DNA of 64,000 nt from Leucocoprinus leucothites (Eukaryota > Basidiomycota > Agaricomycetes > Agaricales > Agaricaceae): NCBI GenBank assembly GCA_013368445.1, contig JAACJO010000004.1:2108001-2172000 (forward strand). Direction: 5' to 3'. How positions within the stretch are numbered: the first letter of the stretch is position 1; each line of letters opens with the position of its first letter. Of this stretch, positions 4,535 to 7,483 are shown in pieces. The notes beneath the pieces were generated by a model. It was given only the letters and a program-made list of their open reading frames with translations, was not told the origin of the DNA and made no database searches. The position numbers and the translations under genes are program-made.

Positions 4535-7483
4535 TCAGTCTTCCGAAGGTACATCCACTTGGAATTCTACTGATTGACCTGCTGAGGGGTGTAAGGTGGC
4601 ACGAGTAGGGGTGCTAATCCCGTGCGCATGGACACGATGTCTGTTTAGCGACCTCGGATGTCGATACCGTTTATTACACTCTGGACAATCGTAGCCTATA
4701 CTTGTGTTATGCGAATTAAGGTGATCTGAGGGGAAAGTATGAGTCATGAACACCAGAAAATAGGAGTTGACACCTGAAGAAAACCTACTGGAAAGATTTT
4801 GTCGAGACGTAAATGCGTCACCGCAAGTCTCACAAACGTACTTCGACTCTCTGCTACGGCGTCTTTCGGATTTAATCTGGCTGAGCGTAGGGCTGCTAGA
4901 ACTTCGACTTGGGTCAGAGAAGGAGGGTTGTAGTCCAGAAAGCATGACTTGTGAGGCGATCGCTGTAGAAGCCAAGTTGGAACCACTTGACTGATTGAGT
5001 AGGCGAGAGGTATCCTCCTCCAGTATCGTGCTCGTTGGAGGGTCAAGATCTGGGACAGAACCAGCTGCGATAAAAAGTTGAGGGAGGGTTGTTTCTCGAG
5101 AGAGGGAGACCAGCTGGACCTGATATCGCAAGTCAACAACTCTAATATTCATGTCAAAAGATGGCTCACTTTCAGTAAAATCTGATAAACGCGTTCACAG
5201 TCGAGTTCGAGGCCTGACTTGTCTCGCATTTCTTCCCAGAATCGGTGCGTATGAGTAGGTGATATTGACACATTCGAGCTTGAGCTTTTCTCCTGTCCTA
5301 TTTTCGCAAAGAATGCTTGAATGATTTCACAGGTAGGCCGTTTTGCAGGATCTAAGTCCCAGCATTTCTCTAGTAGCTCCCATACGGAGTCAGGTATTAT
5401 GTCGCGTGGGTCTTCCACCTCGGGTCGAGTTGGAGTATATTTTCCTCTCAAAAAGGCCTCGATGATCTGGAAATCTCGGAGGAATTGATAAAACGGTATC
5501 TTGCGGGAGAATACCTTGGGTGTTACCGCCACGAGTCAGTGATAGAGGACGATTTAAGCAGAAGTGTGATATTCATACCTCGTAACACAAACACGCGAAA
5601 GACCAGATATCGCTCTGTATCGTCGGTGGAGGCGGAAAATTTGCGCCACTCAAAAGTAGCTCGGGTGCCGTCCAGCGCATCGTGCCATTTGACATTCGGG
5701 TGGAAGGTAGAGTAGCCAGGATGATACTTGATATCCCAAAGTCAGCAATCAGTGCACGCCCATCGTGTGAGACTAGAATATTTCTCTGTAATAGTTTAAT
5801 GCTATATCTTTATCACAAGCTAGAAAGCAATATTACCGCTTTCAAGTCTCCATGCACAATCTGGCTATGGTGCAGGTACAACAGGCCAGAAACAATATCC
5901 TGGATCTTGGCACAATCAGCGACAATAGAAAATATGGTTGGTCTGTATGCATACCAAGGGTACTCGATCACACTCGGGGAAAGAGGAAAGATATTTGGAG
6001 AGATTACCGTTCGGCATCCATGGGGATAAAATACATATCCTTGCCGAGTCCTTGTCGGCGAGGTAAGCGCCATGGAATGGTACAATATTTGGGTGAGAGA
6101 GATGGGCCCATAATATAAGCTCTTTGAGGTGCGCCTGACATGAAGCTAAGATGAACATGGAGGGCAATAGATATACCGCTTATTAGGGCTCACCCGGAGT
6201 GCCCGAGTATTGTCCTGCTTATTAAAGATACGGACGGCTTTAATGCACATTTCTTGTCCGCGATGTATTCCTTTGTATATGTCTGCAGAGTAACCGCCTT
6301 CCTGTGGAAGGCCAAAGTTGCACTGGATATCTTGGAGCTCGTAATGGTGAGGATAAACCTGTGCCGACTTCGCCAGTCTACAAAGCAGATGAAGGAAGTG
6401 TCTGCCTTTGTCGACGTCAAAGATGCCAGTCTCATGCAAGACCTGTCATTAAAAAAAGGTCACTGGGGAAACGACACCCGAGACACAGATCCGTACCGCA
6501 TCCAGGAAATCAACTATTAGCTGTGCATCCTCTCCCACAAGCCCTGTCATGAGCACCTTGTGGTTGGAATTCTTACTCATTTCTAAAATCTTTACACGAG
6601 ACCGTTGGTAGTAGGTGTTTTGTCCCGGGATTTGCAAAGAAGTTTTCTGGATTAACCAATCTAGACTTGTCCATGAGAAGGTCTGTAATTAACAACATAA
6701 CGCAAAAATAATACCTGAGTCGTCCAGTGAAGTATAAATAATTGACCATGTGTTCTCGAAGCTGCCATCAAAGCGTACGGTCTTCGAGGCAGAGTTTCTT
6801 TGGGATATTCTTCTCCAGTACTCCTCCAATGCTTTCTCCTTCTCAGCCCCTACAGCTAACGATCCTAATCTGGCCCACGCTGTTGTTAGAAAAACAATAG
6901 GAGGCGGAGAAGCTCCGTTTATCGCAGTCTCAACCGCAGATCGGAACTTGAGGAGGTGAGGACCAGGGAGAACAGTGTCAGTAATACAATGACAATACAG
7001 GATGCACGGAATCCTAATATTATAGAGCGGCCTTATCATGTTGTTGAGTTTCACAGCTATGTCACGCTGGATAAAGTCACTTACAGGAGAAGGGACCAGT
7101 GTCTCAATGAGGAGACCAATTCGCTGGCAGGGGAATTCCAAGGTTCTGAAAGCGGTATCTCCACAAAAACGATCTTATCTCCGCTACGGCCAGGGATCCA
7201 GCTTTCAACGTATTGAATAACGTCCGAGTTGAGATTATGCTGGATAGGTAAAACACCCCTCCCAACTGCTGCATTGATGAACTTGGAATGATGTCAGCAA
7301 CCGGACGGGGCGGTCAGTCATAGGGTCTGATCCTCGCTCACACTACTTTTACCCGCTCCTGGCCGTCCAAAGACACTGAGACTCATTTAGCAAAAATGCT
7401 AACAACTTGGCTTTGTGTACTCACGGTATGACCATGGAAGTGCCCCGATGGGCTTCAAGAAAAGATGAAACCCCTGCGCCCAT
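4535..7483 (-). CDS. Fusion protein: P-loop G-like domain, TKL-type protein kinase, two C2H2 zinc fingers
   Basis: Twelve exons join to 775 codons (774 residues): 7483-7425, 7375-7342, 7281-7085, 7013-6715, 6660-6497, 6442-6194, 6134-5955, 5905-5837, 5785-5579, 5514-5170, 5119-4789, 4725-4535. Residues 1-7 (MGAGVSS) fit an N-myristoylation signal. Residues 23-30 (GRPGAGKS) are a Walker A motif. Residues about 200-250 are a linker seen ahead of basidiomycete kinases. The kinase domain has Lys319 (CIKAV), Glu339, HGDLKARN with Asp414, DFG 432-434 and APE 457-459, so it should be active, although its Gly-rich loop is degenerate. After a Ser-rich, basic spacer come zinc fingers at about 697-717 (Cys697, Cys700, His713, His717) and 725-746. 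Known: such TKL kinases are expanded in Agaricomycetes. Inferred: signalling from membrane to nucleus. The fusion rests on splice phase alone; a separate G-domain gene or a kinase ending at 5149 are the alternatives. Confidence 0.75.

What the first reader, a model, noticed from the sequence alone, without database searches (positions are those of the whole stretch)
4535..7483. Three-part fusion: G-like P-loop domain, active-looking TKL kinase and C2H2 zinc fingers in one gene
Twelve exons join with matching phases to exactly 775 codons. Walker A (GRPGAGKS), full kinase catalytic residues (Lys319, Asp414, DFG432) and two complete C2H2 fingers lie in one reading frame. I know of TKL kinases and G-domain proteins as separate expanded families in Agaricomycetes, but not of this arrangement. 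It could sense nucleotide or ligand at the N-terminus, signal through the kinase, and act on DNA or RNA through the fingers.
Basis: partly seen in the sequence, partly recalled or inferred. Interest (0 to 1): 0.88.

Follow-up and report, generated by a model that had tools for sequence, protein, structure and literature searches.

The report
Mushroom kinase gene with captured zinc fingers
A mushroom gene appears to join a GTPase-like domain, a seemingly active protein kinase and two zinc fingers in one protein; the first two parts are a known partnership, while the fingers look like an acquisition from a family of stand-alone zinc-finger genes in the same genome.

Summary
A 12-exon minus-strand gene (7483-4535) joins in frame to 774 codons plus stop: degenerate GTPase-like domain, kinase with all catalytic residues, two C2H2 fingers. 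Kinase and G-domain introns lie where relatives have them. The disputed last kinase intron (5169-5120) has a donor-like sequence at the same place in this gene and seven of seven alignable relatives, and two deposited proteins of the same genome break there too. Unusual is the finger pair, which resembles the last two exons of a stand-alone finger family: the intron inside finger 1 recurs in nine of nine loci aligned, and predicted base contacts match 8 of 8 in two paralogues, 7 of 8 in three, only 2-4 of 8 in three distant ones. A second locus has a pseudokinase before such fingers, with weak frame continuity. The start fits an N-myristoylation signal. Immunity-type GTPases are the best matches of the G-domain family profile, not of this protein alone. 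No transcript evidence. New arrangement within a known, combinatorial kinase family.

The parts
4535..7483 (-). whole gene, ATG to stop, 12 exons, 774 aa
7425..7483 (-). exon 1; starts MGAGVSS, N-myristoylation-like signal
   Evidence: motif rule recalled
7342..7375 (-). exon 2; P-loop GRPGAGKSS (residues 23-31)
7085..7281 (-). exon 3; holds the degenerate G3 motif FVEIPLSEP (residues 70-78)
6715..7013 (-). exon 4; rest of G-like domain
6497..6660 (-). exon 5; start of helical pre-kinase segment
   Evidence: helices from the P0015 model
6194..6442 (-). exon 6; pre-kinase segment and kinase N-lobe with Lys319
5955..6134 (-). exon 7; kinase
5837..5905 (-). exon 8; catalytic loop HGDLKA, Asp414
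5579..5785 (-). exon 9; DFG (432) and APE
5170..5514 (-). exon 10; kinase C-lobe and family tail ending VYQILLK
5120..5169 (-). intron 10, phase 0; donor-like sequence at this place in 8 of 8 alignable tails (this gene and seven relatives); retention would end the protein at KVSHLLT
4789..5119 (-). exon 11; linker, basic patch and first half of finger 1
4726..4788 (-). intron 11; phase 1 inside finger 1, same place in nine of nine other finger loci aligned
4535..4725 (-). exon 12; rest of finger 1, finger 2 and C-terminus

Best explanation
One gene of a large, combinatorial agaric TKL-type kinase family, in which the short last exon behind the kinase has been replaced by the last two exons of a stand-alone C2H2 zinc-finger gene. 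Shown: gene structure consistent with family introns, catalytic residues present, finger homology, predicted base contacts equal to two stand-alone genes. Inferred mechanism: the protein is N-myristoylated and held at membranes; the G-like domain, with an intact P-loop but no G3, binds nucleotide or a partner as a switch or oligomerisation module rather than turning over GTP; that state releases the kinase through the helical pre-kinase segment; the fingers bring the kinase to the DNA sites or protein partners of the stand-alone finger proteins, so that it phosphorylates, competes with or monitors them. Whether the fingers act in the nucleus (after release or in an isoform) or at the membrane as a copy of a target protein is open.
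For: Frame-consistent 12-exon model. Kinase and G-domain introns shared with relatives. Nine kinase tails examined; one (L035) aligned only to residue 559; in the other 8 (this gene and seven relatives; L033 extended by two codons) GT[AG]NG follows the residue-601 codon, GT[AG]AG in 6 of 8. Tails of two deposited proteins of this genome (P0001, P0002) match it as two pieces broken at this place, the second piece a short last exon. A predicted acceptor gives a short tail in L046, L045 and others. Finger intron at the same place and phase in 9 of 9 other finger loci aligned, eight apparently stand-alone plus L037; tblastn with the whole protein found no kinase in the four 10-kb stretches that hold those eight, nor in two further stretches. 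Contacts SQNN/HRSR: 8 of 8 in L038a and b, 7 of 8 in L037, L049a and L047a, 5 of 5 aligned in L047b, while other finger positions agree at 7-15 of 36 in these. MGxxxS start in this gene, P0015 and loci L039 and L041. Relatives carry other add-ons: PH, kelch, NACHT-like, a different zinc finger.
Against: No transcript or protein evidence. No deposited protein of this locus turned up, so the annotators' model is missing or very different. GT at intron 10 coincides with a Val codon common in the family, and unspliced tails of relatives also end soon (such as VSRLLFLS). Of the other 7 tails, L033 shows no acceptor within 130 nt, and L048 and L037 show acceptors without a branch-like site. G3 and the classical G4 are absent. 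This G domain alone has no significant PDB match (best E 0.13). Three more distant stand-alone finger loci share only 4, 2 and 3 of 8 contacts (L049b, L050a, L050b). P0043 starts MAFQPP and the G-domain gene at 58 kb probably MEPRIIS, so the MGxxxS start is not general. Membrane anchoring and DNA binding pull in different directions.
Confidence: 0.5

Rival explanations
1. Two neighbouring genes read as one: a G-domain/kinase gene ending in the unspliced intron (KVSHLLT stop) and a separate zinc-finger gene starting at an ATG in that intron or in exon 11.
For: An in-frame ATG overlaps the kinase stop inside intron 10. The GT there also spells a family Val, and unspliced tails of seven relatives mostly stop within 6-21 codons (L037 is the exception). 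Stand-alone finger genes with large upstream exons exist. No deposited fused protein was found.
Against: Donor-like G at +5 in 8 of 8 tails; two deposited proteins of this genome are broken at that place; a 50-nt intron with TTGAC and CAG; no room between the parts for a 3' end and a promoter; linker scores as coding in the joined frame.
Confidence: 0.15
2. Immunity-type receptor with an integrated decoy: the fingers copy a transcription factor family that an invader (virus, bacterium, incompatible mycelium) attacks, and tampering with them triggers the kinase. Not exclusive of the best explanation.
For: The four-sequence G-domain profile matches interferon-inducible GTPases best in the PDB, with GBPs and GIMAP4 near the top; RIPK1 is among the 60 kinase matches shown; combinatorial add-on domains; contacts kept in the nearer finger loci; a pseudokinase-finger pair next to a NACHT gene elsewhere; C-terminal zinc fingers and kinases of fungal NLRs are discussed as possible decoys (PMC12258605, passages).
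Against: No functional data. Profile hits are weak (E 4.5e-6) and include Era, Der and septins; this protein alone gives none. Top kinase matches are EGFR and ABL, not RIPK1. No NACHT or NB-ARC here. No attacker known.
Confidence: 0.2
3. A recent, functionally neutral fusion: the last kinase exon was lost, the transcript runs into a finger fragment, and the C-terminus does nothing.
For: Seen in one genome only among proteins searched; the G domain is decaying at G3; the similar L037 locus has lost kinase residues and needs a weak splice site to stay in frame.
Against: All eight zinc ligands and the contact residues are kept while other finger positions have diverged.
Confidence: 0.2

Closest known systems
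Agaricus bisporus var. burnettii P0015 (Agabi119p4_6063, 622 aa)
   Same: N-terminal MGxxxS, G domain and kinase in the same order; 41% identity over 78% of the query
   Different: G3 intact (FVDTPGF); no zinc finger by Pfam
Leucoagaricus sp. SymC.cos P0028 (705 aa)
   Same: C2H2 fingers and a kinase of the same family in one deposited protein
   Different: fingers N-terminal and of another type, no G domain; a predicted model that could itself be a merge
C3:1571001-1581000 (L037), pseudokinase followed by fingers, same genome
   Same: kinase tail, donor position, finger intron, 7 of 8 contact residues
   Different: HGN and DFT in place of HGD and DFG; no G domain seen; kinase and fingers are in frame only if one more intron with a poor donor is used
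Agaricomycete FslK / TKL kinases (PMC3937382)
   Same: kinases expanded in mushroom fungi (passages seen)
   Different: no FslK membership tree was made here; 'zinc finger' does not occur in that text
Fungal NLRs with C-terminal zinc finger or kinase (PMC12258605)
   Same: nucleotide-binding module with added kinase or fingers (passages seen)
   Different: those have NACHT or NB-ARC; this gene has a GTPase-like P-loop domain
Interferon-inducible GTPases (IRG), GBP, GIMAP
   Same: best or near-best PDB sequence matches of the four-sequence G-domain profile; Irga6 is also myristoylated (recalled)
   Different: weak similarity carried by relatives (this protein alone: best E 0.13), G3 lost, fused to a kinase

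Membership tests
TKL/Tyr-like protein kinase | Pfam kinase domain above cut-off | tested here: met
   PF07714 E 2.2e-40, 139 bits
TKL/Tyr-like protein kinase | catalytic Lys, HxD Asp, Asn, DFG, APE | tested here: met
   K319, D414, N419, D432, APE at 457-459
TKL/Tyr-like protein kinase | phosphotransfer activity | not testable with these tools
   needs an assay
FslK lineage (PMC3937382) | placement in the FslK clade of a kinase tree | not tested
   reference sequences not fetched
TRAFAC / immunity-type GTPase | G1 P-loop GxxxxGK[ST] | tested here: met
   GRPGAGKS
TRAFAC / immunity-type GTPase | G3 DxxG | tested here: not met
   FVEIPLSEP against FVDTPGF in P0015, P0039, P0057
TRAFAC / immunity-type GTPase | G4 [NT]KxD | tested here: not met
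   LTTAW; the three relatives have TTMW
TRAFAC / immunity-type GTPase | significant sequence match to a member | tested here: inconclusive
   profile of four: E 4.5e-6; this protein alone: 0.13, Pfam below cut-off
C2H2 zinc finger | two complete units | tested here: met
   C697 C700 H713 H717; C725 C728 H741 H746
own-genome stand-alone finger family | phase-1 intron after QNLx in finger 1 | tested here: met
   9 of 9 other loci
own-genome stand-alone finger family | same predicted base contacts | tested here: met
   met against nearer loci (8, 8, 7, 7 of 8 and 5 of 5 aligned), not against three distant ones (4, 2, 3 of 8)
fungal NLR | NACHT or NB-ARC ATPase | tested here: not met
   no such Pfam match among the 23 families up to E 1
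integrated-decoy receptor | integrated domain is bait for an effector and triggers a response | not testable with these tools
   needs experiment
N-myristoylated protein | MGxxxS start (rule recalled) | tested here: met
   MGAGVSS; also P0015 and loci L039, L041; the modification itself is untested

The most novel reading that the evidence does not exclude
A fungal innate-immunity sensor built from a myristoylated IRG/GIMAP-like GTPase module and a RIPK-like TKL kinase, in which capture of a transcription factor's last exons created an integrated decoy (or a kinase aimed at that factor's promoters), possibly switched by retention of intron 10, which would let one gene yield a kinase with or without fingers.
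Probability: 0.15. Interest if true: 0.85.

Novelty: new variant of a known kind. Interest (0 to 1): 0.5.

Why it matters
It gives a concrete case of how agaric kinases gain domains: the phase-0 intron behind the kinase can serve as the joint for foreign last exons. If the fingers still bind the sites of their stand-alone relatives, the protein would tie a membrane-type switch and a kinase to a transcription factor's targets, and make the integrated-decoy idea testable in mushrooms.

Tried and rejected
Two-gene reading: not excluded without RNA, but made less likely by the terminal intron of the family. One shared origin of the two kinase-finger loci: neither shown nor rejected; W+L037 as one clade in 0% of 200 bootstrap trees but AU p 0.178; the finger tree of nine rows (L047b left out) is unresolved, 4% of bootstrap trees. 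Chance adjacency: a rough Poisson estimate gives 0.01-0.04 expected kinase-finger pairs against two seen, but it assumes 100-200 kinases, 10-18 finger loci and independence, and counts L037, so it is only indicative. Contact residues were first compared in four sequences chosen by me; the recount with all nine other loci showed three distant loci that do not share them. AlphaFold model of P0015 (14-row alignment): kinase and pre-kinase helices mostly confident, G domain not (segments 1-87 and 101-219 under 50), so no fold search was run. Literature, open-licence PMC only: none of the papers listed described this arrangement in title or abstract opening, and searches listed none; one search found no paper on this genome. 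First acceptor choice (5900) was dropped. My aligner's introns in the linker regions of L037 and C4:2018 kb are not reliable. In one search three loci were read on the wrong strand; replace it.

Full report
What is there. On the minus strand between 7483 and 4535 the sequence splices through eleven GT-AG introns of 49-71 nt to 774 codons plus stop. Pfam sees a kinase at 302-553 (E 2.2e-40) and C2H2 fingers (E 1.6e-7, two stretches) above cut-off; the N-terminal P-loop domain is only sub-threshold.

Where it is. The window is G000:C4:2108001-2172000 of a 47-Mb genome. Contigs C2 and C9 have the same lengths (3147912 and 2148758) as the contigs of deposited Leucocoprinus leucothites proteins P0001 and P0014, and the ends of P0001 and P0002 match C2 at 99%, so the genome is very probably that assembly (inference).

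Is it one gene? I wrote a small spliced protein-to-DNA aligner. Against own-genome relatives L045, L046 and L048 the five kinase introns at residues 251, 334, 394, 417 and 486, all phase 0, coincide in 3 of 3; in the L037 pseudokinase the first four coincide, in the one at C4:2018 kb three. The first two G-domain introns (phase 2 at residue 20, phase 0 at 31), and a third of phase 2 near residue 97, recur in 7 of 7 own-genome G-domain loci outside the window and in a G-domain gene in the window at 58116-58975. The weak point is the step from kinase to fingers. Nine kinase tails were examined; one (L035) aligned only to residue 559; in the other 8, this gene included, GT[AG]NG follows the codon equivalent to residue 601, always phase 0, and GT[AG]AG in 6 of 8. 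L033 was extended by two codons to reach that place. Part of this could be a conserved Val, and the unspliced tails of relatives also stop early except in L037. Two facts favour an intron: the G at +5 in 8 of 8, and the ends of two deposited proteins of this genome, P0001 and P0002, which match it as two separate pieces broken at about this residue, the second piece being a short last exon. Those are gene predictions, not transcripts. With looser rules an acceptor with a branch-like site follows in 5 of 8 (L024, L025, L027, L036 and this gene), an acceptor without one in 2, none within 130 nt in L033. In this gene the intron leads to exon 11. If it is retained the protein stops at KVSHLLT, so a finger-less isoform is conceivable. 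The linker has coding-like codon use in the joined frame, in the lower quarter of coding windows; one other frame is also open.

What the parts are. The kinase belongs to a large agaric family: 183 exon-level matches in the own genome and 354 database proteins at E up to 0.001 among 7994 scored candidates, of which 120 were listed. Among the listed, four carry a GTPase-type Pfam domain (P0015, P0039, P0043, P0057), in either order relative to the kinase; others carry PH, kelch, NACHT-like or zinc-finger domains. The family is therefore combinatorial, and G domain plus kinase is known. In a 46-row kinase tree this gene lies nearest L045, P0027 and P0015 without firm support. The catalytic residues are kept. 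The best PDB matches are tyrosine kinases (EGFR, ABL); RIPK1 is among the 60 shown. The model of P0015 shows a helical segment before the kinase.

The G-like domain keeps the P-loop but has FVEIPLSEP where three relatives have FVDTPGF, so ordinary GTP hydrolysis is doubtful. Alone it has no significant PDB match (best E 0.13). A profile of four G domains (this gene, P0015, P0039, P0057) matches interferon-inducible GTPases best (E 4.5e-6), then Era, GBPs, GIMAP4 and septins. This gene (MGAGVSS), P0015 (MGAAISR) and two own-genome loci (MGNALSG, MGSSSSK) start with MGxxxS, the N-myristoylation rule as I recall it. The starts of the other five loci were not resolved; P0043 (MAFQPP) and probably the 58-kb gene (MEPRIIS) lack it.

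The fingers. Own-genome searches with the finger pair gave loci on several contigs, some in tandem on C4. In nine loci aligned besides this one the intron inside finger 1 lies at the same place and phase. Eight of the nine are apparently stand-alone: tblastn with the whole protein found no kinase in the four 10-kb stretches that hold them. Predicted contact residues here are SQNN in finger 1 and HRSR in finger 2. Agreement over all nine: L038a and L038b 8 of 8, L037, L049a and L047a 7 of 8, L047b 5 of 5 aligned (its second finger is cut short in the alignment), L049b 4, L050b 3, L050a 2 of 8; other finger positions agree at 5-15 of 36. So the contacts are kept among the nearer loci and not in the distant ones. 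The most economical reading is capture of the last two exons of one of the nearer genes.

Second kinase-finger locus. At C3:1571001-1581000 (L037) a pseudokinase (HGN, DFT) is followed on the same strand by the same finger module, and a NACHT gene lies just upstream. The kinase donor is at the same place, but fingers and tail are in different frames unless one more intron is used; ten candidate introns that passed a loose filter keep the frame, all with poor donors. It may be a second fusion, a decayed one, or two genes. One or two origins cannot be told.

Database absence. Three searches showed no deposited protein combining this kinase tail and these fingers, nor one identical to this locus. 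They need shared five-residue words, cover roughly 425-1354 aa and 135-430 aa, and 234 of the 354 matches were not listed, so this is absence from those results, not proof. P0028 of Leucoagaricus has another, N-terminal finger pair.

Mechanism and verdict. I hold the single fused gene to be likely (about 0.8) and the working model, a membrane-tethered kinase whose captured fingers direct it to, or imitate, a zinc-finger family, to be the best but unproven guess (about 0.4). Literature seen: passages of PMC3937382 (kinases expanded in Agaricomycetes), PMC12258605 (fungal NLRs with zinc-finger or kinase add-ons as possible decoys), PMC9815663 and PMC4986451. None of those passages describes this arrangement. 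It is a new variant in a known, combinatorial kinase family.

Noticed in passing
window 58116-58975 (+): A further G-domain gene of the same family (AFMGPTGSGKSF, LVDTPGFD) with introns at the same G-domain positions.
   Followed up: partly
G000:C4 2.01-2.17 Mb (L039-L042, window): Local cluster of G-domain genes; two start with MGxxxS, one (about 2017.8-2020.0 kb) is followed by a kinase with HGN in place of HGD.
   Followed up: partly
L038, L049, L047, L050: Apparently stand-alone two-finger C2H2 loci, some in tandem, with a shared phase-1 intron; L047b lacks a zinc ligand (Tyr for Cys) in finger 2.
   Followed up: partly
L037 7758-9206 (-): NACHT/NPHP3_N gene just upstream of the pseudokinase-finger locus.
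   Followed up: partly
G000:C2 1.97-2.28 Mb, C5, C8, C9: Many tandem kinase tails of the P0001/P0002 type, most matches ending at the same residue, which suggests a shared last intron.
   Followed up: partly
window 48622-51924 (-): BUB1-like protein (Mad3_BUB1_II and kinase) by Pfam.
   Followed up: no
window 3905-4324 (+): CRAL-TRIO (Sec14-like) frame, convergent with the gene studied.
   Followed up: no
window 36689-39598 (-): 970-codon open frame with no Pfam match at E 0.01.
   Followed up: no
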